From positions 1 to 64,000 of IMG/VR virus record IMGVR_UViG_3300034107_000446: a stretch of DNA of 64,000 nt; one strand, written 5' to 3'. The translations under genes were made by a program, and so were the position numbers. The notes under the pieces are model-generated. The model worked only from the letters and a program-made list of their open reading frames with translations, was not told the origin of the DNA and did not search any database. Each line of letters begins with the position of its first letter. Within the stretch, counting starts at the first letter, position 1. Shown piece after piece: positions 5,991 through 64,000 of the stretch. This stretch comes from a virus.

Positions 5991-6289
5991 CAGTGAATGG
6001 CCTCCGAGATCATTGGTATAAGGTCAATTAGTTCATGAATATATTCTTTATAACCAGATTTAATTACATCCACGATATTTACATATTTGGTGTTTGTTTC
6101 GATGCAAATCACACCATATGTTTTATCTTTTTTTGGAAAATATTTTTCGATATAGTATTCTGCATCTTCTTCAGAATCAAAACCAGGTGCTTTGATGATC
6201 GGAAAAACATTATGTTTAGCAAAGATAAAAATACCCTGGTAAACACCAAGAAATAGACCGAGTTCTTTTTCTACTACAAGATATCTCAT
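5990..6289 (-). CDS. Hypothetical protein
   Basis: A 99-residue protein, N-terminus MRYLVVEKELGLFLGVYQGI, looking like a small alpha/beta domain with the segment FDSEEDAEYYIEKYFP in the middle. It overlaps the DUF2786 gene by four bases upstream and abuts the TPM-like gene. Family not recognised. Confidence 0.65.
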   Translation of the reverse strand: MRYLVVEKELGLFLGVYQGIFIFAKHNVFPIIKAPGFDSEEDAEYYIEKYFPKKDKTYGVICIETNTKYVNIVDVIKSGYKEYIHELIDLIPMISEAIH

Positions 6290-18074: not shown

Positions 18075-18370
18075 CTATTTTCATCAGTGATAGTGAATAC
18101 ATTTCTTGCATAGTCCTGTAGAAAATGTTCTTCTTTTCTTAGATTTAATTGTAGTGATGTTATTGCTTCTTTCAATAAAATTATGGATGGCAGTATTTCA
18201 TTAAAATTCTCTTCGAGATTATAACCAAGTCTAACTAATGATTCAAGAGATGAACTTAAGATTGTATCAGTGATTACTTCTACTTCATAGTCCAGTTTAG
18301 GTTCTTGAATAGTTGTTGTGTTTGTTTTACTCAATCGTGATTTAAAATCAATTATTTCAGCCATTTCCAT
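18071..18370 (-). CDS. Conserved T4-like phage protein
   Basis: A 99-residue, largely helical protein (start MEMAEIIDFKSRLSK; an alternative ATG lies two codons in). The stretch LESLVRLGYNLEENFNEILP and a later helix look like a small dimerising domain. It overlaps the glycosyltransferase gene by 14 bases. Function unknown. Confidence 0.6.
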   Translation of the reverse strand: MEMAEIIDFKSRLSKTNTTTIQEPKLDYEVEVITDTILSSSLESLVRLGYNLEENFNEILPSIILLKEAITSLQLNLRKEEHFLQDYARNVFTITDENS

Positions 18371-19313
18371 TTAACTGCTTTAGAAGACTAATCCATTTAG
18401 ATTGAAAATGTGGTATCGAGTTTTTATTAAGTTCTCTGATTGTATCTGCAGAAAGTGCACTAATAAATCCAGGGTTTTTATGTTCTTGCTTTAGAAGTGA
18501 CTTTGTCATTATATATGCAACATTTGCATGCATATTATGATTTTCAGTATAGTCATACATGACAGTTGCACCTCCTGCAGTTTCTGGGAGCGCACCTAAA
18601 CTTGGGTGTATTACTGTGCAGCCACACTTAATTGCTTCAATCATAGCAATACAAGATGTTTCAGTCCAAATGCAGGGATACAAAAATACATGTGATTGCT
18701 TGAGTGCTGCAAGTACTTCTTCGTTTGATTTTGTTCCGTGATATGTAATCTTTGGATGTGTTTTCAAAGCATCAAAAAGTTTTTCATAATGTTTGTCACG
18801 TTCTTTCCAACCATAGATTTCAAAAGATGAGTAGACATCCAAGTGAATATTATCAAATTCTTTTGAAAGTGCATCAAAAATTGGATACAAAAGTTCCAGC
18901 CCGCGATGGGGTGTTGTGTGATATATAAACCGAATAGGACCAATCGGCCTTTCAATATATTCAAACTCAGTTTCAATGGCATTTTCAATTACAGAACACA
19001 TCGAATACGGAATACCATACATAGTAATATATTGATCTCTTTGCCAGTGTGAAACAAACACTAATTTTGAAAATTTATTCCACCCACCATTTAGAAGGAT
19101 TTTATTCTCTGGATCGGCTGCCAAATCATGGCAATAAAAGATATTTTTAACATCATCATAAATTTGTCTAGGTCTAGAAAAATGGATGGCAAAATTATCT
19201 AGTAGAGATGAGGGAACCGCCGCTAAAAGCCGATCCCTCATCATTTCAGTGCCACCTCTAGCGTTTCTAGATAGATCAGTATCTACTATTGCGCCTCGGT
19301 AAATACAACTCAT
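18357..19313 (-). CDS. GT4-family glycosyltransferase
   Basis: A 318-residue GT-B glycosyltransferase. The C-terminal half shows IRFIYHTTPHRGLELLYPIF, a GTKSNEEVLAALKQSHVFLY segment and ETSCIAMIEAIKCGCTVI, typical of retaining GT4 enzymes (the E-x7-E region). The N-terminal RNARGGTEMMRDRL is the acceptor-side loop. It may modify phage DNA, virion glycans or host surface polymers; the substrate cannot be told from sequence. Confidence 0.82.
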   Translation of the reverse strand: MSCIYRGAIVDTDLSRNARGGTEMMRDRLLAAVPSSLLDNFAIHFSRPRQIYDDVKNIFYCHDLAADPENKILLNGGWNKFSKLVFVSHWQRDQYITMYGIPYSMCSVIENAIETEFEYIERPIGPIRFIYHTTPHRGLELLYPIFDALSKEFDNIHLDVYSSFEIYGWKERDKHYEKLFDALKTHPKITYHGTKSNEEVLAALKQSHVFLYPCIWTETSCIAMIEAIKCGCTVIHPSLGALPETAGGATVMYDYTENHNMHANVAYIMTKSLLKQEHKNPGFISALSADTIRELNKNSIPHFQSKWISLLKQLNGNG

Positions 19314-19576
19314 GCAATAAACTCACTTGTAAAATCTTTGACTGAGTCCCATCTAAAACTGCGCCAGCCAGGTGCATTTACATCATATACTGGCTGGACG
19401 GCGGGATTTTCTGTCTTCGATTTAGTTGTTTCGGACAATACACCATCAGAAGGAATCATTAATTCATTGAGAGTGCAATACATCACTCGCTCTTCACCAT
19501 TAACCTTTGTAAATGTTACTTTACAGATTTTCTCATAAAGGGCATTTTTAATTGTGTCTCTATCTAGCAATTCCAT
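19310..19576 (-). CDS. DUF2693-like protein
   Basis: An 88-residue protein. VTFTKVNGEERVMYCTLNEL and the ending GWRSFRWDSVKDF match the SH3-like DUF2693 family of phages. The ATG at 19576 has a GGGGGTTG site and follows the previous stop by one base; an in-frame TTG lies two codons earlier. Function unknown. Confidence 0.7.
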   Translation of the reverse strand: MELLDRDTIKNALYEKICKVTFTKVNGEERVMYCTLNELMIPSDGVLSETTKSKTENPAVQPVYDVNAPGWRSFRWDSVKDFTSEFIA

Positions 19577-19578
19577 TA

Positions 19579-19857
19579 TCAACCCCCAGTCATACTGAAT
19601 GATTTCTTTTCGAGTTCCTTGCGTGATCCGTGCATAAGATCATTGTAGCGAACTCGAATAAATTTCTTATCAGTCTGTTCTTTATTTGGATTTGCCATAG
19701 TAACCCAAGGATTACTACCATTAATCCAAGCACTCTGGCGGTTCAACATATCTTGTCCGGTATCACGATCTGCGCGGATTGCATTACATGTAGCATTTGC
19801 TACATTCTTGCGTTCGCCTTTTGAGATATATGTCTTACCGCTTGCCTTTTTAGCCAT
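19579..19857 (-). CDS. Conserved T4-like phage protein
   Basis: A 92-residue basic protein (KKASGKTYISKGERKNVANA) with a conserved tail RVRYNDLMHGSRKELEKKSF. Relatives occur in T4-like phages near rnh-type genes as I recall them. Function unknown. Confidence 0.6.
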   Translation of the reverse strand: MAKKASGKTYISKGERKNVANATCNAIRADRDTGQDMLNRQSAWINGSNPWVTMANPNKEQTDKKFIRVRYNDLMHGSRKELEKKSFSMTGG

Positions 19858-19872
19858 AGTATATTCACTCCT

Positions 19873-20109
19873 TCATTTTTTTGGTAATTTTATTAGACCT
19901 AAGTCCATGAGAATTTTATAATTAATTTCTGTAAGATCACCGAATGGGTTTAATCTTAGGGCCGTAATTAATCTATCTATATAAATTAATTCTTTTTCAT
20001 TTTTACTTGCAATACTAAAAGATTCAAAGAAAGTTTCTATGTCATATGGATTTTCACATAATATCCTGGTCGATACCACCTTTTTCTTTTTTATTGATTT
20101 TTCTTCCAT
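19873..20109 (-). CDS. Small hypothetical protein
   Basis: A 78-residue protein (PYDIETFFESFSIASKNEKE, then LIYIDRLITALRLNPFGDLT). It overlaps the dNMP kinase gene by 56 bases, which is unusually long here; an internal start would reduce the overlap but none has a good ribosome binding site. Function unknown. Confidence 0.5.
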   Translation of the reverse strand: MEEKSIKKKKVVSTRILCENPYDIETFFESFSIASKNEKELIYIDRLITALRLNPFGDLTEINYKILMDLGLIKLPKK

Positions 20110-20734
20110 TGGATTCCTTTTCGTGGATCATTTGAATCGCACTAAAGAACTCTGTCTTAGTGCCGTTATTATGAACACGATAGGTGCGAATATCTGGTTG
20201 TTCAGAAAGAAGATGTGATTTTATAATAGGGGTTTGTTTGCCCAAAACAAGTTCTTCCACAAGGTTTCCATTAAAGTATCTTCTTGAATCCGAAGAAAAA
20301 TTGCAACCTTCTCGTGTAAGCTGAATGACTAATATAATTTCAGCTCCAAACTTATTTATAATTGGAGAAAGTTCCTCTTGGAAGCCGCCGTCACTGACAC
20401 AGAAATTGCGGTCAGTTGTTATCTGTTCTGATAACTTTTTGCCAAAATATTCTTTACCGTATTTAGGTTTGATATATTGTTCGGAAACATAGATCATTGC
20501 ATCTCTACGACTTAATGACTGTCCGTTTATTTTTAATTGGGGAACAGGTTGCTCTTTTATTGTTCTATCATTATAACCTTTCATAAACCAACCTTTAGAA
20601 ACACCAAAGAATTTGAATGTTTCTTTGAATAGTTCTTCTTTGAATGAAAGGTGTTTGTATCCTAGTGTCTCATAAAATAAACAGGCTGCGTCTTTGCCGC
20701 AGCCTGGAGGACCATTAAAAACTATTACTGACAA
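20054..20734 (-). CDS. Deoxynucleoside monophosphate kinase
   Basis: A 226-residue P-loop kinase. Walker A is NGPPGCGKDA near residue 10, the lid contains FSSDSRRYFNG and the substrate side shows RRDAMIYVSEQYIKPKYG. The fold and length fit T4 gene 1, which phosphorylates dGMP, dTMP and modified dCMP. It supplies dNDPs between the deoxyribonucleotide reductase step and DNA synthesis. A basic tail (NGRKINKKEKGG) is variable. Confidence 0.82.
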   Translation of the reverse strand: MSVIVFNGPPGCGKDAACLFYETLGYKHLSFKEELFKETFKFFGVSKGWFMKGYNDRTIKEQPVPQLKINGQSLSRRDAMIYVSEQYIKPKYGKEYFGKKLSEQITTDRNFCVSDGGFQEELSPIINKFGAEIILVIQLTREGCNFSSDSRRYFNGNLVEELVLGKQTPIIKSHLLSEQPDIRTYRVHNNGTKTEFFSAIQMIHEKESNGRKINKKEKGGIDQDIM

Positions 20735-20947
20735 TTAAACCTCTGCACCTAGATCTGAAAAGGCGTCATCCCATTCTTCTGCTGTAATACCAGAAAGAAT
20801 AAATTCACGGTCGCTGTCAGTAAGATAGGGCATAATGTCGTGGATATTCCCATGACCTGCCTGCCATGCCATGTAATCATCAAGATTAACGGGAATGCTA
20901 CGAGTACGTTCGATGCCAGAGATTACGCTTTTACGTTTGATATACAT
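20735..20947 (-). CDS. Conserved phage hypothetical protein
   Basis: A 70-residue protein (start MYIKRKSVISGIERTRSIPV). IMPYLTDSDREFILSGITAE and an acidic end resemble a widespread phage family with a conserved Q-D-x-x-P-x-L-T-x-x-x-R-E-F-I pattern. It ends next to the dNMP kinase start and has its own promoter. Confidence 0.7.
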   Translation of the reverse strand: MYIKRKSVISGIERTRSIPVNLDDYMAWQAGHGNIHDIMPYLTDSDREFILSGITAEEWDDAFSDLGAEV

Positions 20948-20983
20948 GTCGATCCATCCTCATTTATATTTGTCGTATAATTC

Positions 20984-21012
20984 AATATATACTCATTCAT
21001 TTGGTTTGTCAA
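20984..21012 (-). promoter_or_regulatory. sigma70-type promoter inside a coding end
   Basis: TTGACA, 17 bases, TATATT. The -35 lies inside the RuvC-like gene just before its stop. Drives the gene at 20735-20947. Confidence 0.8.
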
Positions 21013-21559
21013 CCATTTTGTTGAACCCAAGTTTTGCTATATAGTAAGCATCAACTATGTCAGAGACTGGGTTCCATATTTTCTCGTTCATTATGTCGAG
21101 TGTCTTTCGAATGTCGACATTTGTTTCTTCTAGAAAACATTCATACAAACGTTCTTTATTTGAATTTCCCTTTCCCGTGGCGTGTTTCTTTATTTCAGAT
21201 GGCGCAAAAACAGAAAATGGTATTCCATCTTTCCATAATTTATATTTAAGAAGACCAGTGTTTTCGGCAATCTGAAAGACTCTACCTACTGCATTATATG
21301 CATAACCTTCAATGAAGCATTTTTCTGCTTTATTTTCCATAATAATACGAGAAGACCAACCTGATATATTATCATATCTGTGAGCATCCGAATCATATTT
21401 TTCGTATTCAGTCCCAAAGAACTGCCCAGAAAAAACAATCCATTTTGGTTTTGGGGAAAGATAATAAAACTTACAATTCTTGACATCCCACGTGTCACCA
21501 TCGTGAACACAAATAGATGGACTTGTTAAACTATAATCAATACCAGCAATAATAGTCAT
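20993..21559 (-). CDS. RuvC-like Holliday-junction nuclease
   Basis: A 188-residue RNase H-fold protein. Catalytic acids appear in IIAGIDYSLTSPS (Asp 8), CFIEGYAY (Glu) and the late SDIVDAYYIAKLGF. The middle TGLLKYKLW and a serine-rich PSEIKKHATGKGNSNKERL match RuvC and phage relatives. It likely resolves recombination intermediates before packaging. Its start codon and ribosome binding site are buried in a 13-bp hairpin. Confidence 0.8.
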   Translation of the reverse strand: MTIIAGIDYSLTSPSICVHDGDTWDVKNCKFYYLSPKPKWIVFSGQFFGTEYEKYDSDAHRYDNISGWSSRIIMENKAEKCFIEGYAYNAVGRVFQIAENTGLLKYKLWKDGIPFSVFAPSEIKKHATGKGNSNKERLYECFLEETNVDIRKTLDIMNEKIWNPVSDIVDAYYIAKLGFNKMVDKPNE

Positions 21560-21592
21560 AAATACCTCTACATTTTCTATAGAGGTATTTAT
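21558..21592 (-). promoter_or_regulatory. Start-sequestering hairpin
   Basis: A perfect 13-bp stem with a 9-base loop. Its 3' arm contains AGAGG and the first two bases of the start codon of the RuvC-like gene. Folding would block initiation. Thermodynamics not computed. Confidence 0.65.
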
Positions 21593-21600
21593 TTCATTAC

Positions 21601-21786
21601 TTACATGTTGTCAGAATACCGCTTCATTTGTTCTCGTGCTTCTTCCAAGTAATTAGAAGCACCACCGACTCCACCAGTTTCATCAAACCAGACAAAGACA
21701 CCTTCATCATATTGATAGATATGACTTTCAATTACAATGGGATATTTTGGTTTGGCAAGATATTCGGTATTATCATAATATTCCAT
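21601..21786 (-). CDS. Small conserved phage protein
   Basis: A 61-residue protein (EYYDNTEYLAKPKYPIVIES, then GVFVWFDETGGVGGASNYLE). The ATG at 21786 follows AAGGAATTGACT; a TTG two codons upstream is possible. The phrase WFDETG is a recurring phage motif. Function unknown. Confidence 0.6.
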   Translation of the reverse strand: MEYYDNTEYLAKPKYPIVIESHIYQYDEGVFVWFDETGGVGGASNYLEEAREQMKRYSDNM

Positions 21787-21788
21787 AG

Positions 21789-22091
21789 TCAATTCCTTCT
21801 CATTTGAGCAACATCAATAGCGGCTTCTCTGTTATCACGCCGAATAGGAACAAGATTTGATTTGTGCATTACTGTAATTCCCATAATCTCGTTTCCGGAA
21901 TATACATTTTCAAGTTTTTTTGGTGTTTGGCCTGGAATAGTATCTGAAGTTTTTGGAAGTGTTGATTTTACTCTGTAGTCTGGTATTTCATTAACGATAA
22001 TACCCTTATATCTACCAGTAAACCCAACACGAACCAAAAGTAATTCCATTTGTCTTTCAGCTTCAATTAGTGATTTTCTTTTCTTTTTCAT
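21789..22091 (-). CDS. Conserved phage protein
   Basis: A 100-residue protein beginning MKKKRKSLIEAERQMELLLV. Basic, with beta-rich centre (YKGIIVNEIPDYRVKS) and a conserved-looking end MHKSNLVPIRRDNREAAIDV. Related proteins are known from T4-like phages. Function unknown. Confidence 0.6.
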   Translation of the reverse strand: MKKKRKSLIEAERQMELLLVRVGFTGRYKGIIVNEIPDYRVKSTLPKTSDTIPGQTPKKLENVYSGNEIMGITVMHKSNLVPIRRDNREAAIDVAQMRRN

Positions 22092-22282
22092 GTCAATGGT
22101 TTCAATTTGAAGTCGGGAATTTGATAAGTGTAAATCTGCATTAACATACTGACCTTGTATAGATCTTGATTCAATCTACCTTCTAGATAATCCACAAGAT
22201 CTATAGTTGAGTTTGTATCTACAAGATGCATATCAAAATCAACTTCAAGAGCTTCAGATATTGTACAATCCAAATCAATCAT
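22088..22282 (-). CDS. Small acidic protein, start uncertain
   Basis: A 64-residue protein (MIDLDCTISEALEVDFDMHL, then NSTIDLVDYLEGRLNQDLYK). The reading frame stays open upstream to 22393, but a promoter with TTGACA and TATTAT lies inside that upstream part, so transcripts from it can only make the shorter form. The ATG at 22282 has no strong ribosome binding site. Either form is possible. Confidence 0.5.
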   Translation of the reverse strand: MIDLDCTISEALEVDFDMHLVDTNSTIDLVDYLEGRLNQDLYKVSMLMQIYTYQIPDFKLKPLT

Positions 22283-22330
22283 AATTTCTACAATACTTTG
22301 TTCATATGAACAAATAGTGACGTGAGTTTT

Positions 22331-22359
22331 ATAATAAACCGATTCTAGTAAATTGTCAA
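22331..22359 (-). promoter_or_regulatory. sigma70-type promoter
   Basis: TTGACA, 17 bases, TATTAT. The spacer ends AGAATCGGTT, as in the DUF932 promoter. It lies within the open frame upstream of the gene at 22088-22282. Confidence 0.75.
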
Positions 22360-22367
22360 TAATTGAT

Positions 22368-22619
22368 TTAGAATGGTTGGTCACCATACCCACCGATCGT
22401 ATTTTCTACTTCTTTTACTAAATCTTCATAACCACCAATGTATCTATCATCCCACCATATCTGCGGTACTGTTTTTACACTAGGTAATTTTACTTTCATA
22501 TCGTTCAGATTCTTGTCATCATCTGTGTCTTTCCATTCATATCTGAGACTATATCGTTCCGCAAGTCGTTTTGCTCGGATACACCAACCACATCTTGAAT
22601 GGCCATAAATTGTAATCAT
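22368..22619 (-). CDS. Glutaredoxin
   Basis: An 83-residue protein. ITIYGHSRCGWCIRAKRLAE has the redox pair CGWC at residues 10-13, and VKTVPQIWWDDRYIGGYEDL supplies the cis-proline TVP and the GGYDD-type motif of glutaredoxins. T4 NrdC plays the same part, giving electrons to ribonucleotide reductase. The ATG at 22619 overlaps the previous stop (ATGA). Confidence 0.9.
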   Translation of the reverse strand: MITIYGHSRCGWCIRAKRLAERYSLRYEWKDTDDDKNLNDMKVKLPSVKTVPQIWWDDRYIGGYEDLVKEVENTIGGYGDQPF

Positions 22620-22852
22620 TTCTTTAAATCCTTTCTTGTAAACCAATAACTCCAAGAGTGTAGACAGTGATGTGGATCAAACCAAAATATGGAATCAATT
22701 AACAATACTAAATTAAACTTACCTTCTCTTTTTCGTTGGTAGTTTCGTGCGCTGAAACTTTGATTGCTATAACCACCAAGAATTACGTTTAATAATATCG
22801 AAAATGCTATAAATATTCGCTGAAAATATTTCTTTATTTTTATTGGTTCCAT
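22616..22852 (-). CDS. Small membrane-associated phage protein
   Basis: A 78-residue protein with one N-terminal hydrophobic helix (IFIAFSILLNVILGG) and a conserved-looking core YSNQSFSARNYQRKREGKF followed by DPHHCLHSWSYWF. The pattern of a helix followed by GG-x-x-x-Q-x-F-S-A-R-x and a C-terminal HC occurs in other phages. Function unknown. Confidence 0.55.
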   Translation of the reverse strand: MEPIKIKKYFQRIFIAFSILLNVILGGYSNQSFSARNYQRKREGKFNLVLLIDSIFWFDPHHCLHSWSYWFTRKDLKK

Positions 22853-22912
22853 GGAATAACTCCTTCATAATGCCATGGTGTATTTATTCCATATCAGATA
22901 TCTTTTATGTGT

Positions 22913-23374
22913 TCACTCCTTAAACTCAACTGGCACACAAAAGCCATTCTTCCATGACGAATATTTTGCCTTAGCAAGACTAGTTTCAGTTTCTCCGCTG
23001 TACAGAATTTTATTGAGCTTGATTTTTTTACGCTTGTCGAGCCAAGTTCCGAGCATAATAATCCCTATAAAGGAAGCAACAAAAACCGTTAATACACCAG
23101 TTGTTACTAAAGCGTCGGCTGTGTGGTAGATAAACCCATATCCAATTGAATATACAAGCCAAATGAAGGCCGCGGCGACAGCAAGTACAAATGTAGCAAC
23201 AACAAGAACTTTAAAGATACTATAGAGAGTCAGTTGCCAATATGAACAAAGATTATCTTTACTCTGGACATATCGCTGGGCATAACCTTCACTTTTTAAA
23301 GTACCATTTGTCTGGCACATCTCAAGATTAAGTTTATAATGCCAGGAATTTTTATTTACGGAAAATAGTTTCAT
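22913..23374 (-). CDS. Membrane protein
   Basis: A 153-residue protein with two membrane helices (about 52-76 and 89-112) flanked by cytoplasmic basic segments; the C-terminus is SWKNGFCVPVEFKE. Family unknown; it overlaps the upstream deoxyribosyltransferase-like gene by four bases. Confidence 0.6.
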   Translation of the reverse strand: MKLFSVNKNSWHYKLNLEMCQTNGTLKSEGYAQRYVQSKDNLCSYWQLTLYSIFKVLVVATFVLAVAAAFIWLVYSIGYGFIYHTADALVTTGVLTVFVASFIGIIMLGTWLDKRKKIKLNKILYSGETETSLAKAKYSSWKNGFCVPVEFKE

Positions 23375-42630: not shown

Positions 42631-44130
42631 TTAATACCTATCTACAATAACGTCTTCGTACTCTGCTGGTTTGAGCTCAGACCGCTCACGAACTTGCTCG
42701 AACGTAGACTTGTTGAACAGCTCGCCGTTCAGGTATACCAGCTTCAAGAGGTTGTCTTCTGGTGTTACCATTTCCTCTGGTAGAGTTCTGTATCCGCAAG
42801 ACCCCAAACCACATTGGCGTACCAGAGCAAGACGACCCTCTTTAGACTTTTTGCCGTGATCGCCAACTGGATCCTTGCTGAACCCAACCCAAGGACCGTC
42901 AGCAATTCGAATTGCACTGGCCTTCATTGCATATTTCAGAGTATCACGATTCCATGCTTGCAACAGTCCGCCTCCCATACCAAATGCGATATTCTCTAGA
43001 CTATAACCTGCCGCAATGATATTGTCAACAAGTACTTGCAGAGTATGTTCGTTCAAACCGTCACCTTGAATAACTTTGACAATAGGTGATCCGTCTGGAC
43101 GTTTTGCAAGAACTTTGTAGCCCTTGCTATTGACAGTGTAGCCAAAGCATTCTGCGAGGATGTCCATGATTTCAATTGGAACGGTCATCGGATCGCCAGA
43201 GTCAGGGCGGACGACCAAAGTGCCACCACTGTCGATCACCAAGTCTTTGAGTTGATTACCCCAAAGTTCACGAACTGCTTCGTAGATGTTGTAACTATCA
43301 GACACGCAGGCATAGATGCTTCCCGCAAAGCTGAACTGCGTAACCATATTGCGGTATGCTTCAACCTCGTTAGCACGACCCCAGCTGGTAACGGTGCTGT
43401 GCTCACTAGCAGGAATGGTCCGAGCAACAGGAGGTGCATCCAGACTAGTAATGTCAGCATCGTAGTATGCATATGCACCAAGAATACCTTCGACTGTATC
43501 CGACCCCCAGAAGTTAACCAAGTGACTCATACCACCAAGAACAGCACTTTCAGTTGAGCTTACACCGCGTCCACCAAAGTCGTGCAGAGCAAACTTGATC
43601 ACCAAATTCATCAACACGTCAACGGGAATGTCAGAGGTTTTCACCAGAGCCTTTGCAATGATCTTCTTGAACTTACGGCTCTTGGTAGCAACAGTAGAAG
43701 GATACCAAACCCCACGCAACAGTGCCATTTCGATGTAGGAGGTCAGCCAGCCAAATCCACTCGTGGTATTTTTGACCTGCACTTGGACGTTATGAGTTTC
43801 CATAACGGTTCCCTCTGGAACGGCAGTGATTTCGAGTGGCAAAAATCCACCAAACTCGTTGAGCACACGTTCCCAACCTTCACGATTGAAGGGAGCGCCG
43901 TATACTTTGAAGATCAGCTCAGCAAAGTTGATGTCCGCCATAGTAATTGGTGTGGTCATGTAATCCATGATCCAAGCCTGTCCACCAAAGAAGGTACTTT
44001 TGTCTTCCCCACCACGAGACTCAATATATGAGCTGATGTGAGTTGTGCCTGGCGGGTATTGTTTAAATTGGGATGGTTTGTAACCGTCAGTGCGCAGAAT
44101 CGCAGTGAGTAGGTGTAGAATGTTTTTCAT
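42631..44130 (-). CDS. nadV: Nicotinamide phosphoribosyltransferase
   Basis: A 499-residue enzyme that joins nicotinamide and PRPP to make NMN, the first step of NAD+ salvage. Signatures of the NAMPT family are the N-terminal TDGYKPSQFKQYPPG, the HDFGGRGVSS motif, IPASEHSTVTSWGR, VVRPDSGDP and VIQGDGLN, then FGMGGGLLQ. It is close to full length. The KVP40 phage encodes a comparable nadV with natV. Its start codon follows a hairpin whose loop carries the ribosome binding site, and it has its own promoter. GC content is higher than that of the small genes nearby. Confidence 0.93.
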   Translation of the reverse strand: MKNILHLLTAILRTDGYKPSQFKQYPPGTTHISSYIESRGGEDKSTFFGGQAWIMDYMTTPITMADINFAELIFKVYGAPFNREGWERVLNEFGGFLPLEITAVPEGTVMETHNVQVQVKNTTSGFGWLTSYIEMALLRGVWYPSTVATKSRKFKKIIAKALVKTSDIPVDVLMNLVIKFALHDFGGRGVSSTESAVLGGMSHLVNFWGSDTVEGILGAYAYYDADITSLDAPPVARTIPASEHSTVTSWGRANEVEAYRNMVTQFSFAGSIYACVSDSYNIYEAVRELWGNQLKDLVIDSGGTLVVRPDSGDPMTVPIEIMDILAECFGYTVNSKGYKVLAKRPDGSPIVKVIQGDGLNEHTLQVLVDNIIAAGYSLENIAFGMGGGLLQAWNRDTLKYAMKASAIRIADGPWVGFSKDPVGDHGKKSKEGRLALVRQCGLGSCGYRTLPEEMVTPEDNLLKLVYLNGELFNKSTFEQVRERSELKPAEYEDVIVDRY

Positions 44131-44147
44131 AATAGAACTCCTCTATT
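44131..44147 (-). promoter_or_regulatory. Leader hairpin with exposed ribosome site
   Basis: AATAGA-GGAGT-TCTATT directly before the nadV ATG: a 6-bp perfect stem that displays GGAG in the loop. Confidence 0.65.
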
Positions 44148-44189
44148 GTTAGTGTTGTTACCAATTCTCTCTGAACTGGATTTAGTTTA

Positions 44190-44217
44190 AATATATACTA
44201 CTTTACTTGTTTGTCAA
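44190..44217 (-). promoter_or_regulatory. sigma70-type promoter
   Basis: TTGACA, 16 bases, TATATT. Drives nadV, with a leader of roughly 50 bases that includes the hairpin. Confidence 0.75.
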
Positions 44218-44224
44218 CTGATTC

Positions 44225-44518
44225 TTATGCGGCTTGATCTTGGGCATCATGCCATTCTACAGTCCATTTTTGTAATTTTCTGTGGCCTTTTGGCCAATCA
44301 TTCATGCCAAGGTATGTGACTTGATCACAGCATGGGCATTTAAAGCATACAGTTGGATTACAATCACATTTTTCATCAAAGTAACCTGGGCGATAGCGTA
44401 GATCATTCCAATCAATTTCAAGTAGTGCTTCGCAGCCTTCATTATCGCCACCCCAACCAGTGCAGCGATGTTGAATGGTCCATTGTTCTTTTGTTTTGCC
44501 TAGTTCAAGAATTTTCAT
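44225..44518 (-). CDS. Zinc-binding phage protein
   Basis: A 97-residue protein with seven cysteines (CTGWGGDNEGCEALLEI, then CDCNPTVCFKCPCC), able to hold two zinc ions. Trp-rich C-terminus. Widespread small phage family; function unknown. Confidence 0.65.
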   Translation of the reverse strand: MKILELGKTKEQWTIQHRCTGWGGDNEGCEALLEIDWNDLRYRPGYFDEKCDCNPTVCFKCPCCDQVTYLGMNDWPKGHRKLQKWTVEWHDAQDQAA

Positions 44519-44586
44519 AGCTTCTCCAATACTTCATCTAATTCTTTCAGGAAACTCCAGGCGGGATTATCGCCCGAAGTATGTTT
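44515..44586 (-). pseudogene. Out-of-frame 3' part of the small gene at 44547
   Basis: A 23-codon frame (KHTSGDNPAWSFLKELDEVL and onward) with no start codon; a TGA lies immediately upstream. It reads more like protein than the in-frame tail of the overlapping gene, suggesting a frameshift. See findings. Confidence 0.4.
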
Positions 44587-44690
44587 TCATTATCAATATA
44601 TAATGAAACCAAATAACCTAATTCTTGAAGTTCTCGTTTATTGGCAGAGATATTCAAGACATAATCTGATGCTGTTAGTTGTACATCCAT
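44547..44690 (-). CDS. Small protein, possibly frameshifted
   Basis: A 47-residue ORF starting four bases after the natV stop (MDVQLTASDYVLNISANKRE, then LGYLVSLYIDNEN). The ATG has GGA seven bases upstream. Its last 11 residues (ILRAIIPPGVS) look unlike the rest; the other frame continues with a better sequence. Function unknown. Confidence 0.5.
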   Translation of the reverse strand: MDVQLTASDYVLNISANKRELQELGYLVSLYIDNENILRAIIPPGVS

Positions 44691-44694
44691 TTGT

Positions 44695-45759
44695 TTATCC
44701 AATGTTAATGAAGTTGTCGATGATATGAAAATGATCTTCGAAGAGCTTCTCTTGTTTGACTTGGTTGAATGGAACCCAGAACGCTTTTTCAGCATCATCG
44801 GAACCTTTGACCTTTGGAAGTTCACCAACACCAAGGTCAATCAAGAATGCCTGTGTGATGGTACGACCACGAGATGAGCGGTTCGGAGCATCAAAAGTCT
44901 TGGACTCTTTGATAGAACCCTTGAGAACGGGAACAGGAACCTTGATTTTTGTTTCCTCTTTCAACTCACGGATAGCCCCATCAAGCATAGTTTCATCTTG
45001 ATTGAGGAACCCGCCAGGCAGCGCCCATAGTCCTTTTCCTGGCATGTCGCCACGTTTCACGAGAAGGATGTGACCTGACTGAATAACAACAGAGTCAACA
45101 GTCATGAAGGTTGGTGGGAACGGCGCAGATTTCCAAGCTTCCTTGTATTTCTTGACCATATCATATTCTTTAGAAAGAGTATCCCATGCACCGCCAATTT
45201 TGGCATTTTGCATGATAGTATTAGCCATCGCATCATATGAAGGTTTTGGCATTGCGGCAGCAATTTTACTTGGGGACCCATTTTCACCGAACAACATCTT
45301 CCGAATATCAGTAGCATTGATACCGTTAACATCACCAACTTCGACATGGTCCTTCCAACGAGGAAAGATGTTCAAGTAGTAACTAGTACTGTCCTTCGAA
45401 TGACCGATAAGACCAACATCTTTTGCATCAGGGACGGTTTCATCAACAATCTTCTGGATCGCGTTGACCCACTTGTTGTCGTCATATGGAAAGTCAGAGA
45501 CTGGAACCACTTTGATGCGAGGTGTCTTGTTTCGACCCTGTGCACCGTCATAAGTGAAGTGCTTTGGTTCATTGAAGCAAGCTTCAATCATAGTCTTGCG
45601 TTCTTGGAATGTAAAGGGATTTCGGATATTTCGTGCGGCAAAAGAGGAACCGACTACGATTACTACTTCTTTTGCTTGTTCTAATGCAGCATCAATAACT
45701 GCTTTGTGTCCATTGTGAAACGGTTGGAATCTTCCGATAAAAACTAGTGCATCGCGCAT
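44695..45759 (-). CDS. natV: Bifunctional NMN adenylyltransferase/Nudix h.
   Basis: A 354-residue two-domain enzyme. Residues about 1-180 are NMN adenylyltransferase: VFIGRFQPFHNGHKAVIDAA with the HxGH-type signature (His 15, His 18), VVGSSFAARNIRNPFTFQER and a later ISATDIR-like GINATDIRKML. Residues about 210-340 are a Nudix domain with box GGFLNQDETMLDGAIRELKE plus ETKI. The first domain turns NMN into NAD+; the second may clean ADP-ribose. With nadV it makes a two-step NAD+ salvage route, as in phage KVP40. Its leader carries two hairpins shared with the next gene upstream. Confidence 0.92.
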   Translation of the reverse strand: MRDALVFIGRFQPFHNGHKAVIDAALEQAKEVVIVVGSSFAARNIRNPFTFQERKTMIEACFNEPKHFTYDGAQGRNKTPRIKVVPVSDFPYDDNKWVNAIQKIVDETVPDAKDVGLIGHSKDSTSYYLNIFPRWKDHVEVGDVNGINATDIRKMLFGENGSPSKIAAAMPKPSYDAMANTIMQNAKIGGAWDTLSKEYDMVKKYKEAWKSAPFPPTFMTVDSVVIQSGHILLVKRGDMPGKGLWALPGGFLNQDETMLDGAIRELKEETKIKVPVPVLKGSIKESKTFDAPNRSSRGRTITQAFLIDLGVGELPKVKGSDDAEKAFWVPFNQVKQEKLFEDHFHIIDNFINIG

Positions 45760-45761
45760 TT

Positions 45762-45804
45762 GCAAAAACTCCTTTTGCTATATTGAGTGATCCTCTCTGG
45801 ATCA
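45762..45804 (-). promoter_or_regulatory. Shared two-hairpin leader, copy 1
   Basis: TGATCC-AGAGA-GGATCA followed by GCAAAA-GGAGT-TTTTGC just before the natV ATG. Nearly identical to the leader at 46490-46531. Confidence 0.7.
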
Positions 45805-60217: not shown

Positions 60218-60562
60218 TCAAGCTCCTAGATTATATTTGCCGATATTGACAAAACCGAAGTTGTCAACGATGTAACAATCACCGTCCTTGACAAAGATAT
60301 CACCGACAGATCCACTCGAACCACGAGCAAGCCGCCGAACCAATCCATCTTCCCAGAGGTTTGTCGATTCAAATGCTTGATCTAGGTCATCAGTATCAAC
60401 TTCATAAGTTGCATCGTAATACTCTACAAAGTCTTCATTCCACTTACGAGCACCGAGCATCATATCTGCACGAGCAACTGCTTTAGGAACTGCGTCCCAA
60501 CCTCGTGCATTGACAGCGATAATGTCAGAATCACTCAGTCGGATTTGGTAAATAGTGATCAT
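60218..60562 (-). CDS. Conserved phage protein
   Basis: A 114-residue acidic protein (TIYQIRLSDSDIIAVNARGW, then DAVPKAVARADMMLGARKWN). The phrase N-A-R-G-W-D and the later YDATYEVDTDDLDQAFE recur in phages. Function unknown. Own promoter. Confidence 0.65.
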   Translation of the reverse strand: MITIYQIRLSDSDIIAVNARGWDAVPKAVARADMMLGARKWNEDFVEYYDATYEVDTDDLDQAFESTNLWEDGLVRRLARGSSGSVGDIFVKDGDCYIVDNFGFVNIGKYNLGA

Positions 60563-60593
60563 GTTAGGTTCCTCTGTGTTACCTTATAGAATC

Positions 60594-60622
60594 AGTATAA
60601 ACTATTTAAAAGCATTTGTCAA
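60594..60622 (-). promoter_or_regulatory. sigma70-type promoter
   Basis: TTGACA, 17 bases, TATACT, then GATTCTATAAGGTAAC. The -35 contains the stop of the gene at 60619. Confidence 0.9.
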
Positions 60623-60780
60623 CCCACCAAAGATACTTTTTTCAACTCATCCAACTTTTTACAGACTTCATCCACTTGTTTCCAATCTTGAGCATTTTTA
60701 GCGGTTACCAATGCAAGAATTAGATCAAGTTTGGTATTTACACGATCAAGAGCAACATTCACATCACGGAAGTTTTTCAT
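60619..60780 (-). CDS. Small helical protein
   Basis: A 53-residue helical ORF (FRDVNVALDRVNTKLDLILA, then QVDEVCKKLDELKKVSL). Own promoter and GGAGACACC site. Function unknown. Confidence 0.6.
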   Translation of the reverse strand: MKNFRDVNVALDRVNTKLDLILALVTAKNAQDWKQVDEVCKKLDELKKVSLVG

Positions 60781-60808
60781 GGTGTCTCCTTTTATTCATT
60801 ACGGTACC

Positions 60809-60837
60809 ATTATATACCGATTCTTTACATTTGTAAA
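60809..60837 (-). promoter_or_regulatory. sigma70-type promoter
   Basis: TTTACA, 17 bases, TATAAT with AAGAATCGGTA before the -10. It follows the reductase terminator. Drives the small gene at 60619. Confidence 0.8.
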
Positions 60838-60842
60838 TAGAA

Positions 60843-60862
60843 AAGAGGCCCGAAGGCCTCTT
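60843..60862 (-). terminator. Intrinsic terminator, UUCG loop
   Basis: AAGAGGCC, TTCG, GGCCTCTT, then TTCTATTT on the minus strand. It closes the ribonucleotide reductase operon. Confidence 0.88.
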
Positions 60863-60864
60863 TC

Positions 60865-61884
60865 TTAAGCTTCACATGCAGCGCACCCAGCGGCTGTTAC
60901 TCTTTTTCTGGTCAATGCTTGGGCGGCCGACATTGAGTAACTGTAATACAAGCTCTTGACACCCATTTCCCATGCATATAGATAAAGTGCATTTATTTCT
61001 TTTACAGGCATATCTGGATCAACCATCAAGTTCAAACTTTGACCTTGGTCAATGTATTGTTGACGAACACCAGCGTGATCAATAATAGTGTAAGGGTTAA
61101 TTTCAGCAAAGGTCTTGAATACTTCTTTTTCATTTGGAGACAAGAAGTCTAGATGTTGGATTGAACCATCTGCATTTTTAATTGTTTCCCATACCTCTGT
61201 TGTGTTTTTACCTTTTTCTTCTAGCAATTCCTGAAGGTAAGGATTTTTAATAGTCACTTTCATCTTTGCAAGATCTTTGACATAGCAATTAGAGAACTCA
61301 GGCTCGATAGACTGACTTACCTGTCCTAGAATAAAACTACTAGATTTAGTAGGTGCAATTGCCATGGTTGTAGTATTACGCATACCATAACCCTTAAGTA
61401 ATGGTGGTTCACCTAGTTTTATTGCAAGTTCACGTGATGCAGCGTGTGAACGTTCCTGTAATGTTTTTGCAATTTCCATGTTCTTCTTTGCTGCTTCTTT
61501 AGATTCAAAACCAATCATATTAGATTGAAGATATGAATGCCAACCAAGAATACCAACACCGATTGCACGATGATTAATTGCAAATTCACGTGCACGCTTC
61601 AGATATTCTTGACCTTCAGCTTTACGGATAAACTCTTCACAAACTGTATCAAGGAACATTGTCATAACTTCGATAGCGTCTGTTTCAATAATCTCATCCC
61701 AGTGAAGAGCATTAATTGATGAAAGGACACAAGTAAAAGTTTCAGTGACAGACGACGGAAGTGCAATTTCGATACAATTATGTACCAATATATCGTTGGC
61801 AAAAAAAGATGATGTTTCCGGAACTGTTATATCGTACACGGGTATTTCTTCATCATAATCAATGTATTCTATTCTTATACCCAA
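60865..61884 (-). CDS. nrdA: C-terminal half of split-intein NrdA
   Basis: A 339-residue product made of two parts. Residues 1-36 are a C-terminal intein half: VYDITVPETSSFFANDILVH is the block F/G pattern, ending in the His-Asn of the splice junction. Residues 37 to the end are NrdA C-extein (about 303): CIEIALPSSVTETF opens with the catalytic Cys, followed by SLNLMVDPDMPVKEI, KSLYYSYSMSAAQAL and a terminal GCAACEA redox pair. The gene starts at TTG 61884 with AAGGAAA seven bases upstream, overlapping the endonuclease stop. Trans-splicing with 62794-63882 should restore one chain. Confidence 0.92.
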   Translation of the reverse strand: MGIRIEYIDYDEEIPVYDITVPETSSFFANDILVHNCIEIALPSSVTETFTCVLSSINALHWDEIIETDAIEVMTMFLDTVCEEFIRKAEGQEYLKRAREFAINHRAIGVGILGWHSYLQSNMIGFESKEAAKKNMEIAKTLQERSHAASRELAIKLGEPPLLKGYGMRNTTTMAIAPTKSSSFILGQVSQSIEPEFSNCYVKDLAKMKVTIKNPYLQELLEEKGKNTTEVWETIKNADGSIQHLDFLSPNEKEVFKTFAEINPYTIIDHAGVRQQYIDQGQSLNLMVDPDMPVKEINALYLYAWEMGVKSLYYSYSMSAAQALTRKRVTAAGCAACEA

Positions 61885-62723
61885 TTTTTAGTTTCCTTTT
61901 TTGTAAATTGTCTCCATTCGTTTGAATGGAAGCTGTTATATTTTTCTAAAGTTATTCCATCTTTTTCGGAACATTTTATTAATTCATCTACCATACCCCA
62001 AAATCCTCTATTTGAAAATCTAAACATTTTCCAATGTTTTAGATGAGGTAAATTATAGTAAACAGAATGTTGAATCCAAAAACTACCATTAACCAGTTTA
62101 TTGTACTTATAGCAACAATTTTTATAAGATTCTAATAAATCTGTGTCGGAATATTTGCTATTTTGATTAGCATATCCTAGACTCTCGTTACTTCTTATTT
62201 TATTCTGTTCAGCAGTTTTCTTTAATCCTTTAGTAATATGAACCCATTCGCCATTTAAAACCTTTGGATCATTCATTGATACTATACCCAATCTTTCGCC
62301 AGTAAGTAGATTTTTTGCTGGCATAGTTCCAGTTTTACCTTTACTTATAGCTTTATTTGTTTGTATTTTATATTTTTCATATATTCTTGAACTATAGTTA
62401 TATACAGACCTTTTATTATTTACAGGGCCGCCATTTAAAAACATTTTTAATGAAAGATAGCAGCGATATTCCCATTTTGTATTATTCCATATCTTACAAA
62501 GTATTAAATGTGCTATAAAATGTTCTCTTGGAGTAAGATATGTAATATTACCTACGTGCTCGCCATCACCTTCATATATTCCATCATTATGACGAAGTTT
62601 TCTTTTATTATTTTTATAAAAAAATACCGGTACTATATGATGTTTTTCCAAACTACCGCCCCGAATTTTTTTCCTTCTTATACCTCGTTGGCACATATTT
62701 TGGTATATTTTTTCATAATTCAT
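61875..62723 (-). CDS. HNH homing endonuclease between nrdA halves
   Basis: A 282-residue protein. An N-terminal HNH core has LEKHHIVPVFFYKN (His 28/29), EHVGNITYLT (Asn 59) and PREHFIAHLIL (His 68, His 72). The middle carries ERLGIVSMNDPKVLNGEWVH, a phrase common in phage homing endonucleases, and DNA-binding repeats follow. T4 MobE and Aeh1 MobE are homing enzymes between or within nrd genes. It should copy itself and the split into intact nrdA. It is AT-rich compared with nrdA, suggesting recent arrival, and its start is inside a hairpin. Confidence 0.88.
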   Translation of the reverse strand: MNYEKIYQNMCQRGIRRKKIRGGSLEKHHIVPVFFYKNNKRKLRHNDGIYEGDGEHVGNITYLTPREHFIAHLILCKIWNNTKWEYRCYLSLKMFLNGGPVNNKRSVYNYSSRIYEKYKIQTNKAISKGKTGTMPAKNLLTGERLGIVSMNDPKVLNGEWVHITKGLKKTAEQNKIRSNESLGYANQNSKYSDTDLLESYKNCCYKYNKLVNGSFWIQHSVYYNLPHLKHWKMFRFSNRGFWGMVDELIKCSEKDGITLEKYNSFHSNEWRQFTKKETKNWV

Positions 62724-62774
62724 GCAGTAAAATCTCCTTTTTATTTTTATTTATAATAAGGGAGATTTCACTAC
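62724..62774 (-). promoter_or_regulatory. Hairpin hiding the endonuclease start
   Basis: A 14-bp stem (two G-U wobbles) with a 23-base AT loop. The 3' arm contains GGAG and ends next to the ATG of the endonuclease. It should restrain translation. Confidence 0.72.
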
Positions 62775-62793
62775 ATTATAGAGTGTTTAGAGA

Positions 62794-63882
62794 TTATTCA
62801 CCTATTAGAAGTTCATCATCTTCTGTAAGATCTTTAGCTTCTACCCAACCTCTGTTTTGAGTAAAGATTTTATGATCTGGTGTGCACTCAACAACTTTGC
62901 CTGTTTTATCATCAGTAATACGTATCATTTTTTTAGTAGAACCAGTTTGGGCGGCCGCAGTAACTTTACAGAAACCTTTTTCTGTTTTTACTTTAGTCTC
63001 AGCTGGTATTCCACCTATTGACCAAAGTTTAACAAATGTTTCTATATCTATTGTTTGTGGTTCTTTTTCAAACGGAAACCACACTGTCATAATACTATCA
63101 CCACGTAGACACATGTTTGACGCATGGATCTTCATCTTTTTATCTTTATAGACTTGAGGCTTGTTATTGTTAACATTATCACCAAATAGGATATAAGGAT
63201 ACCCAATCTCTGATCTACGCTGAAGTACTTTTGCCCAGATTCGGCGCTTCTCTGCATCACCTTTTTTCATTGACTCTATAAATGAGTCTGAAACAACAAT
63301 ACCAGTAGTTAGTCCCTGAATTGGATTTCCTTCGGTTCCAATATCTAAAAACTCGTCGGCATCTGGATGATCAATATCTTGATATGCAGCAAAGAAACCT
63401 CTGCGAACTGAACCTTGTGAAACTACTGATGCGAGTGTATCATATAGTTGCATAAAGTGGACGGAACCTGATGATGCGCCGGAATCTGTAATATTAGCCC
63501 CACGGTGACGGACTGCACCGAAGTAACCGGAACAACCACCACCATTTTTCATTAACATACCGTTTTCTGCAACGCCAAAAAGAATTGATTCCATATTATC
63601 ATCAATATAAGAGCCAAAGCAAGAAACTGGTAAACCACGCTTCTTACCATAATTAGCCCAAACAGGTGATGAGAGAGAATAGAAACCACGTGACATATAA
63701 TCATAAAATTTGTCTGCATATCCAGGAATACCTAGATATTTTTCTGCTGTTGCGGCGATCTCTCTAATTCGACTTTCTGCAGTTTCACCCGCATCTTCAT
63801 TGATGTAGCCCCTTGAAAGAAACTTTCGTGAGTCTTCATTCAACCAATAAAATTTTTCGTACGTCTTTGTTACCTCTATCAA
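62794..63882 (-). CDS. nrdA: N-terminal half of split-intein NrdA
   Basis: A 362-residue product. Residues 1-257 are the NrdA N-extein (GLPVSCFGSYIDDNMESILF holds a redox Cys; KNGGGCSGYFGAVRHRGANI and VRRGFFAAYQDIDHPDADEF are class I motifs), ending ...KIHASNM. Residues 258-362 are an N-terminal intein half: CLRGDSIMTV opens it (block A, splice Cys), GKVVECTPDHKIFT is block B with its Thr and His, and it stops at LIGE. No ATP-cone is present. A TTG at 63882 overlaps the stop of nrdB; GGAGG lies ten bases upstream. Ligation with the C half gives about 560 residues. Confidence 0.93.
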   Translation of the reverse strand: MIEVTKTYEKFYWLNEDSRKFLSRGYINEDAGETAESRIREIAATAEKYLGIPGYADKFYDYMSRGFYSLSSPVWANYGKKRGLPVSCFGSYIDDNMESILFGVAENGMLMKNGGGCSGYFGAVRHRGANITDSGASSGSVHFMQLYDTLASVVSQGSVRRGFFAAYQDIDHPDADEFLDIGTEGNPIQGLTTGIVVSDSFIESMKKGDAEKRRIWAKVLQRRSEIGYPYILFGDNVNNNKPQVYKDKKMKIHASNMCLRGDSIMTVWFPFEKEPQTIDIETFVKLWSIGGIPAETKVKTEKGFCKVTAAAQTGSTKKMIRITDDKTGKVVECTPDHKIFTQNRGWVEAKDLTEDDELLIGE

Positions 63883-64000
63883 AATAGATCATCCTCCGTA
63901 AATGCTTTTGTTTTCTTTGAATATGCTGTGCTTCTCTTAACAAAGAAGTCAACATTTTTTGTACTTAAAATTTCTTCAACAAACCAATCTGTGCTTGAAA
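63879..64000 (-). CDS. nrdB: Ribonucleotide reductase beta subunit, partial
   Basis: The last 39 codons of a gene that extends past the window edge. SSTDWFVEEILSTKNVDFFV, then KRSTAYSKKTKAFTEDDLF, resembles the C-terminus of phage and T4 NrdB, where the tail binds NrdA. It ends in TTGA overlap with the nrdA start. Identity rests on this tail and on position, so moderate certainty. Confidence 0.75.
   Translation of the reverse strand, partial: SSTDWFVEEILSTKNVDFFVKRSTAYSKKTKAFTEDDLF

What the first reader, a model, noticed from the sequence alone, without database searches (positions are those of the whole stretch)
60865..63882. nrdA fractured into two genes with split-intein halves around a homing endonuclease
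Seen directly: one gene ends with an N-terminal intein half (105 residues, CLRGDSIMTV start, CTPDHK block B, stop after LIGE). The other begins with a C-terminal half (36 residues, ending DILVHN). An HNH endonuclease lies between them. The exteins meet at SNM | CIE, so the +1 extein Cys is the predicted thiyl-radical Cys of NrdA. If splicing fails there is no working reductase. Known: fractured genes with split inteins were described from marine metagenomes (Dassa et al.) with a different endonuclease family, and Aeh1 MobE splits nrdA without an intein. The combination of trans-splicing split intein and an HNH intruder in one nrdA appears to unite both patterns.
Basis: partly seen in the sequence, partly recalled or inferred. 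Interest (0 to 1): 0.88.

Follow-up and report, generated by a model that had tools for sequence, protein, structure and literature searches.

The report
Split reductase gene with homing endonuclease
In this uncultured T4-like phage the gene for an essential DNA-building enzyme is broken in two by a mobile DNA-cutting gene, and the two protein halves carry matching tags that are predicted to weld them back together; the arrangement is a known kind, but relatives found here, including one in a cultured phage, make it directly testable.

Summary
On the minus strand nrdA is two genes: an N-half (257 extein + 105 intein residues) and a C-half (36 + 303), with an HNH endonuclease gene between. The exteins meet at the predicted thiyl-radical cysteine. 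It is not an assembly error: identical contigs, two diverged relatives and cultured Yersinia phage TG1 share the layout, while 75 of 78 spanning relatives are uninterrupted. The splicing residues are kept in 22 of 22 same-site inteins compared. The HNH protein is a relative of T4 MobE/MobB/MobC, behind a covarying hairpin that buries its ribosome-binding site and holds a T4-type late promoter in the loop, as published for I-TevI and Aeh1 mobE; the C-half has its own exposed site. Carriers do not form one clade, and TG1 shows divergent flanks around the insert: signs of homing. Best reading: trans-splicing restores NrdA; the endonuclease is made late and spreads the cassette. The kind (fractured genes) is known, and HNH in a fractured polB was reported. 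Added here: contiguous, split, decayed and endonuclease-free inteins at one codon, and one phage genome with three fractured genes. Splicing and cleavage remain untested.

The parts
63112..63882 (-). nrdA N-half, extein part (257 residues; TTG start overlaps the stop of the upstream nrdB)
   Evidence: nrdB ending here is 45-47% identical to annotated beta subunits of phages SCTP-2 and St1.CM
62797..63111 (-). N-terminal split-intein half, 105 residues (Cys1, block B CTPDH); stop at 62794-62796
   Evidence: homologous to the contiguous mini-intein of L133, which in turn matches NrdJ-1
62722..62776 (-). RNA hairpin, 16 counted pairs in the outer stem, enclosing the Shine-Dalgarno site and reaching the HNH start codon
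   Evidence: z -6.9; 4 compensatory pairs in 3 sequences; lowest z of 147 ORF upstream regions; letters checked
62748..62755 (-). TATAAATA, T4-type late promoter, in the hairpin loop
62734..62739 (-). AAGGAG Shine-Dalgarno of the HNH gene, in the 3' arm of the hairpin
   Evidence: probability unpaired 0.11 in the long transcript, 0.67 in the modelled late transcript
61875..62723 (-). HNH endonuclease gene (282 aa), relative of T4 MobE/MobB/MobC
61894..61898 (-). AAGGA Shine-Dalgarno of the C-half, inside the 3' end of the HNH gene
   Evidence: probability unpaired 0.78
61777..61884 (-). C-terminal split-intein half, 36 residues (VYDITV ... DILVHN), TTG start overlapping the HNH stop by 10 nt
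60865..61776 (-). nrdA C-half, extein part (303 residues, first residue the predicted radical Cys; ends CAACEA)

Best explanation
A mobile 'fracture' cassette sits at the codon of the thiyl-radical cysteine of a T4-like phage's only detected NrdA. Shown by sequence: a split class-1 intein, a mob-type HNH gene between its halves, a hairpin that covers the HNH ribosome-binding site and holds a T4-type late promoter in its loop, a separate exposed ribosome-binding site for the C-half, precise empty sites in close relatives, scattered distribution, and divergent flanks around the equivalent insert in cultured phage TG1. Inferred: on the early transcript only the two NrdA halves are translated; the intein halves associate and splice NrdA together; late transcripts start inside the hairpin loop, free the HNH ribosome-binding site, and the endonuclease then cuts intein-less nrdA of co-infecting phages so that repair copies in the cassette.
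For: Cys1, T-x-x-H, block F Asp, HN end and Cys+1 in 22 of 22 same-site inteins. Purifying selection on both intein halves and the HNH gene (pN 0.10-0.14 vs pS 0.64-0.86 for the halves; 0.23-0.28 vs 0.65-0.73 for HNH). NrdA catalytic positions keep their residues against T4 NrdA (by eye), and no second PF02867 gene was found in G000, G001 or G002. Contiguous mini-intein L133 is the close homologue of the halves; its predicted fold (mean pLDDT 69) is closest to NrdJ-1. 75 of 78 spanning relatives are empty. Extein tree: 3 changes, one clade rejected (p-AU 0.0003). TG1 against phiR1-RT: dense differences within about 43 nt left and 84 nt right of the insert. Hairpin: z -6.9, -7.5, -8.7, 4 compensatory pairs, 47 of 47 counted cells paired. 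TATAAATA: 29 of 54 sites lie 8-50 nt before an ORF start, against a mean of 2.6 and a maximum of 7 for 55 permuted 8-mers. T4-type gp55 in the relative G001.
Against: No splicing, cleavage or expression data. Only 9 of 33 T4 proteins tried match G000, three of them the mob endonucleases, and gp55 was not found in G000 or G002, which are fragments. TATAAATA is not enriched in number inside the window (5 found, 4.5 expected) or in G000 (17 against 15 for the pattern read backwards); the evidence is its position before genes and its excess in G001 (54 against 18). No divergent flanking tract is visible between window and L005 or the empty relatives. Hairpin and late promoter are not universal: of 12 HEGs at this site, 7 have TATAAATA; z is -4 or lower in 8, about -3 in 2 and near 0 in 2 (L142, L171); 5 of 12 have no recognised Shine-Dalgarno site before the HEG, nor before the C-half; in L145 and L185 the modelled late transcript does not expose the site, and in the window the start codon itself is no freer (0.35 to 0.36). 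The late start was assumed 5 nt after TATAAATA, not mapped. The HNH structure model was too poor to use (mean pLDDT 55).
Confidence: 0.85

Rival explanations
1. The two NrdA polypeptides assemble without splicing, as in phage Aeh1, and the intein halves are leftovers.
For: Aeh1 NrdA split by mobE is active as two chains (PMC2988022 passages). A T4-like Escherichia phage, AV111, has a split nrdA with a MobE-like gene and no intein.
Against: The intein halves sit exactly at the catalytic Cys, so unspliced halves would carry 105 and 36 foreign residues at the active site. The splicing residues are kept in 22 of 22, also where the endonuclease is gone or decayed (L181, L206, L140, L141), and the halves are under purifying selection.
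Confidence: 0.05
2. The endonuclease is kept mainly as a weapon against co-infecting intein-less phages (interference competition) rather than as a selfish homing gene.
For: Such a role is claimed for an intron endonuclease of phage PhiPA3 (PMC11620839, start of abstract in a search listing). The HNH gene is under purifying selection.
Against: Patchy, non-clade distribution and the TG1 flanks point to movement of the cassette itself. The two roles are not exclusive.
Confidence: 0.15
3. A decaying or artefactual locus: an assembly break in a normal intein, or a pseudogene.
For: Decayed versions exist elsewhere (L140, L141).
Against: Identical layout on separate contigs L004 and L009, diverged intact copies L005 and L087 and cultured phage TG1; pN well below pS in every part.
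Confidence: 0.01
4. The hairpin is a transcription terminator or RNA-processing site, not a translational switch.
For: Another strong hairpin in the record, before the ORF starting at 52594, looks like a terminator between genes. Two of 12 cassettes at this site lack a strong structure.
Against: The stem contains the HNH Shine-Dalgarno site and reaches the start codon, and the late promoter is in its loop in window, L005, L087 and TG1. A terminator here would silence the C-half, which is needed for NrdA.
Confidence: 0.12

Closest known systems
Fractured genes with split inteins and a free-standing endonuclease (Dassa et al. 2009, NAR 37:2560; paper not held, content recalled and seen second-hand)
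   Same: An enzyme gene broken by a split intein with an endonuclease gene between the halves; nrdA among the targets (7 nrdA loci according to PMC3653736).
   Different: The endonuclease here is mob-type HNH; about half of the 2009 loci had Vsr-like enzymes (recalled). I could not check which types the other half had, nor what control elements that paper described.
NrdJ-1 split intein (PDB 8ubs)
   Same: Nearest solved structure by sequence (4e-14) and by fold (Foldseek E 2e-7) to the contiguous homologue L133; its natural split near this place is recalled.
   Different: 26% identical in the structural alignment; host gene name differs.
Aeh1 mobE insertion in nrdA
   Same: mob-type HNH inside nrdA, ribosome-binding site sequestered by an RNA structure, promoter arrangement like I-TevI (PMC2988022 passages).
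   Different: Described there without an intein; the halves work as separate chains.
Pseudomonas phage MIJ3 polB with putative split intein and HNH gene (PMC6892783, passages)
   Same: Same three-part layout with an HNH endonuclease.
   Different: Different host gene; no regulatory hairpin or mobility evidence in the passages seen.
Yersinia phage vB_YenM_TG1 nrdA (KP202158)
   Same: Same insertion site, split intein, mob-type HNH, hairpin with TATAAATA, overlapping C-half start.
   Different: Longer NrdA with an N-terminal extension; HNH only 30% identical over 185 residues; annotated as two nrdA genes plus a homing endonuclease.

Membership tests
Fractured gene with split intein (2009 kind) | one conserved enzyme gene in two ORFs, N-half ending and C-half starting with intein halves | tested here: met
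Fractured gene with split intein (2009 kind) | free-standing endonuclease gene between the halves | tested here: met
Fractured gene with split intein (2009 kind) | protein trans-splicing | not testable with these tools
   needs expression; residues present
Class-1 intein | Cys1, TxxH, block F Asp, penultimate His and terminal Asn, nucleophilic +1 | tested here: met
   block names and class recalled
T4 mob-type HNH endonucleases | sequence homology over the HNH domain | tested here: met
   T4 MobE 1.6e-9, MobB 3e-8, MobC 6e-7
T4 mob-type HNH endonucleases | H-N-H catalytic residues | tested here: met
   H28/H29, N59, H68 invariant in 3 of 3; assignment of the motif by eye
T4 mob-type HNH endonucleases | site-specific DNA cleavage | not testable with these tools
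   needs protein
I-TevI / Aeh1 mobE regulation | hairpin sequestering the ribosome-binding site | tested here: met
   (window, L005, L087)
I-TevI / Aeh1 mobE regulation | late promoter placed so that late RNA lacks the 5' arm | tested here: met
   position by sequence, promoter class; transcript start not mapped
I-TevI / Aeh1 mobE regulation | late-only expression of the endonuclease | not testable with these tools
   needs RNA and protein time course
Aeh1-type split NrdA without intein | no intein sequence at the break | tested here: not met
   intein halves present
Group I or II intron with HEG | intron RNA around the HEG | tested here: not met
   no Rfam match in 60500-64000 up to E = 1

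The most novel reading that the evidence does not exclude
The HEG with its hairpin, late promoter and terminal overlap with the C-half start is a portable fracture module. It turns contiguous mini-inteins into trans-splicing ones, separates early enzyme synthesis from late endonuclease synthesis, and recurs in unrelated genes: the relative G001 (194,645 bp) has uvsX, gp41 and nrdA all fractured, each HEG behind TATAAATA and each C-half start overlapping the HEG stop (10-20 nt). At the nrdA site alone, contiguous, HNH-split, GIY-YIG-split, decayed and endonuclease-free split forms coexist, so the birth and decay of split inteins can be read at one codon.
Probability: 0.55. Interest if true: 0.72.

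Novelty: new member of a known kind. Interest (0 to 1): 0.52.

Why it matters
How split inteins arise is an open question. Here one insertion site holds contiguous mini-inteins, split inteins with intact, decayed or no endonuclease, and empty genes, and a cultured pair (TG1 with the insert, phiR1-RT without) makes homing, trans-splicing and the predicted late-only endonuclease testable. The halves are also new candidates for split-intein tools, being relatives of NrdJ-1, one of the fast ones (PMC7090010 passages).

Tried and rejected
Assembly artefact and pseudogene: rejected by separate contigs, diverged copies, TG1 and selection. Intron: no Rfam match. Divergent flanking tract around the window's own cassette: looked for against L005, L006, L008, L012 and L022, none seen. 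Genome contigs: of the 80 loci kept (of 303 relatives) nearly all match only the extein residues before the junction; four that reach further were checked: L284 and L285, the same sequence in a Methylophaga MAG, have a large contiguous intein at this site, L337 and L353 are uninterrupted; the other 76 were not examined. HNH fold: model too poor, not searched. Dassa 2009 could not be read (PMC2677866 not held; one search was a wrong identifier guessed by me). KP13-7 nrdA was not worked out. The intein tree has only 2 of 18 starred branches; contiguous rows need 5 changes on the best tree, but starred branches force only 2, so repeated fracture or re-fusion is suggested, not shown. In that tree L141 was labelled as lacking a HEG; later showed a hairpin and 11 codons of an HNH start, so it is counted as decayed here. 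In one search seven loci were dropped for missing extein parts, 25 identical rows were merged, and six copies of the window or L005 (L001, L004, L009, L084-L086) were left out beforehand; L087 entered with 61 of 257 N-extein residues. In one search, 36 of 88 loci had no recognisable NrdA C-extein and 11 no N-extein; they were left out and not identified. Types were merged by contig name or by equal gap length and near-equal identity, not by full comparison. The 80 loci are the best of 261 relatives and those the best of 294, so counts are not a census.
Full report
What is there. The N-half ends in a 105-residue intein half, the C-half starts with a 36-residue one, and both match complementary parts of the Pfam splicing domain, below its curated cut-off. 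An nrdB gene ends where the N-half starts. Aligned with T4 NrdA, the joined exteins keep the cysteines, the S-N-M/L-C-x-E motif and the C-terminal C-x-x-C; the first C-extein residue is the predicted radical Cys (the role is recalled from class I reductases). No second large-subunit gene was found in G000, G001 or G002; G000 and G002 are overlapping fragments of what looks like one phage (spacing of matches). G000 matches 9 of 33 T4 proteins tried: gp61, gp41, UvsX, ligase, RNA ligase, NrdA and three mob endonucleases.

The same thing elsewhere. L004 and L009 are identical to the window over the 8.1 kb compared. L005 and L087 are diverged copies: N-extein 85 and 66, N-intein 78 and 79, HNH 65 and 57, C-intein 86 and 78, C-extein 83 and 75 percent. 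Of 80 relatives kept (the best of 294), 78 span the junction; 75 are uninterrupted and 3 split. The closest, L006 and L008, read through SNM-CIE without scar. On the extein tree of 50 distinct rows, window, L005 and L087 fall in three places; three changes are needed and a single clade is rejected (p-AU 0.00028; window with L005 0.0067).

A series at one codon. With profiles of the intein halves, 88 loci were examined: 41 had both exteins, 30 split and 11 contiguous. Merged, these are 16 split types and 5 contiguous mini-inteins of 140-150 residues. Of the 16, 11 have an HNH gene, one (L185) a GIY-YIG gene (by eye), two a decayed HNH (L140 truncated, L141 only a hairpin and 11 codons) and two none, with spacers of 36 and 40 nt (L206, L181). 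Of 12 intervening ORFs other than the window's, 11 match the window HNH at 1e-12 or better; L185 has no match at 1e-3. L133 is contiguous and groups with window, L005 and L087 (100/99). With TG1 added, 22 of 22 inteins keep the four motifs tested.

A cultured example. Yersinia phage TG1 has nrdA, HNH and nrdA in a row, with intein halves at the same cysteine, TATAAATA in a hairpin before the HNH gene (z -4.8) and a 14-nt overlap with the C-half. Its relative phiR1-RT has one uninterrupted nrdA. Per 100 nt the two are 97-100 percent identical along nrdA, apart from the bins on either side of the insert (85 and 76 percent) and one other bin of 90 percent; base by base, the dense differences lie in the 43 nt left and from 18 to about 84 nt right of the insert. 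That is the flanking-marker pattern expected of homing; a review describes co-conversion of flanking exons for T4 introns (PMC2988022 passages). A larger divergent stretch upstream of nrdA lies where phiR1-RT has its own annotated endonuclease gene. In the phages collection TG1 alone has this HNH at 1e-10 or better (two records of one phage).

Control of the endonuclease. A hairpin of 16 counted pairs covers the Shine-Dalgarno site: z -6.9 (window), -7.5 (L005), -8.7 (L087). Over these three sequences 47 of 47 counted cells pair and 4 of 16 pairs change on both sides; 17 of 500 shuffles reach that score, so with three sequences this is support, not proof. It is the most structured of 147 ORF upstream regions tested in the record, of which 4 have z of -4 or lower. 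The loop holds TATAAATA. In G000 and 97 kb of G001, 29 of 54 TATAAATA sites lie 8-50 nt before an ORF start, against a mean of 2.6 and at most 7 for 55 permuted words, including sites before genes whose sequences look like the major capsid protein and tail sheath (those two names by eye). In number it is not enriched in the window or in G000 (17 against 15), but it is in G001 (54 against 18). G001 has a gp55 homologue (4e-26); G000 and G002 do not. RNA modelled to start 5 nt after TATAAATA frees the HNH Shine-Dalgarno site (0.11 to 0.67 in the window, 0.00 to 0.83 in L087, 0.00 to 0.92 in L005), while the C-half site is open on the long RNA (0.78, 0.86, 0.82). Exceptions among the 12 HEGs are listed under evidence against. 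This is the arrangement reviewed for I-TevI and, as similar, for I-TevII, I-TevIII, segB and Aeh1 mobE (PMC2988022 passages).

More than one gene. G000 has a second fractured gene outside the window: uvsX, with a GIY-YIG-like gene (by eye) between the halves and +1 Thr. G001 has three: uvsX, gp41 (+1 Ser, HNH-like gene by eye) and nrdA; half of G001 was not read. In the six cases checked (window and TG1 nrdA, G000 uvsX, three of G001) the HEG has TATAAATA within 72 nt of its start and the C-half start overlaps the HEG stop by 10-20 nt. The gp41 HEG has a strong hairpin (z -6.2) while the two uvsX HEGs do not (z -0.9, -1.2).

What is known. Fractured genes were described in 2009; I could not read that paper. 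[quoted passage not shown] a 2020 paper lists NrdA-2 as identified by metagenomics but not characterised before (PMC7090010 passages). HNH in a fractured gene was reported for MIJ3 polB (PMC6892783 passages). No paper combining split inteins with the hairpin and late-promoter control came up in the one search for it (2 papers hold 4 of 5 terms, neither has 'split intein'). In the search for TG1 none of the 8 papers listed, of 41, holds 'phage TG1'. The library holds only open-licence papers, so absence there means little.

Verdict. A sound observation of a known kind, in a well-preserved form. Trans-splicing is very likely, homing likely, late-only endonuclease expression probable; none is shown by experiment.

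Noticed in passing
G000 99299-96912 (L119, outside the window): uvsX of the same phage is also fractured: N-intein half, GIY-YIG-like gene behind TATAAATA, C-half with +1 Thr overlapping the endonuclease stop by 20 nt.
   Followed up: partly
G001 18076-23016 (L125, L126): In the relative that carries L005, uvsX and gp41 are fractured next to each other, each with its own endonuclease gene; with nrdA that makes three fractured genes in one phage genome.
   Followed up: partly
L141, spacer after the N-intein stop: Fossil of an HNH gene: a hairpin and the first 11 codons remain while the split intein is intact.
   Followed up: partly
L444 (Escherichia phage AV111) 1501-4660: nrdA split shortly after the same cysteine by a MobE-like gene (46% to T4 MobE) without any intein, similar to the Aeh1 case.
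   Followed up: no
L443 (Campylobacter phage CPt10) and L441 (F379): nrdA is annotated as a disrupted pseudogene in CPt10 and as two genes in F379; in both it ends in an N-intein half and resumes with a C-intein half (...LCVHN), with two hypothetical genes between that do not look like endonucleases by eye: probably a split intein, not a pseudogene.
   Followed up: no
L091 831-1268 and L092 5686-6123: Short ORFs that look like the start of a radical-SAM protein (CxxxCxxC motif, by eye) end in an N-intein half; possibly another fractured gene.
   Followed up: no
L002 4004-6673, L003 3992-6673, L284 and L285 around 5064-6056: Large contiguous inteins at the same nrdA cysteine in Salicola phage SCTP-2, Staphylococcus phage St1.CM and a Methylophaga MAG.
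   Followed up: no
window 42631-45765 (-): Genes that look like a nicotinamide phosphoribosyltransferase and an NMN adenylyltransferase/Nudix protein (by eye): a possible phage NAD salvage pathway.
   Followed up: no
window, just upstream of 52594 (-): Strong GC-rich hairpin between two genes, probably a terminator.
   Followed up: no
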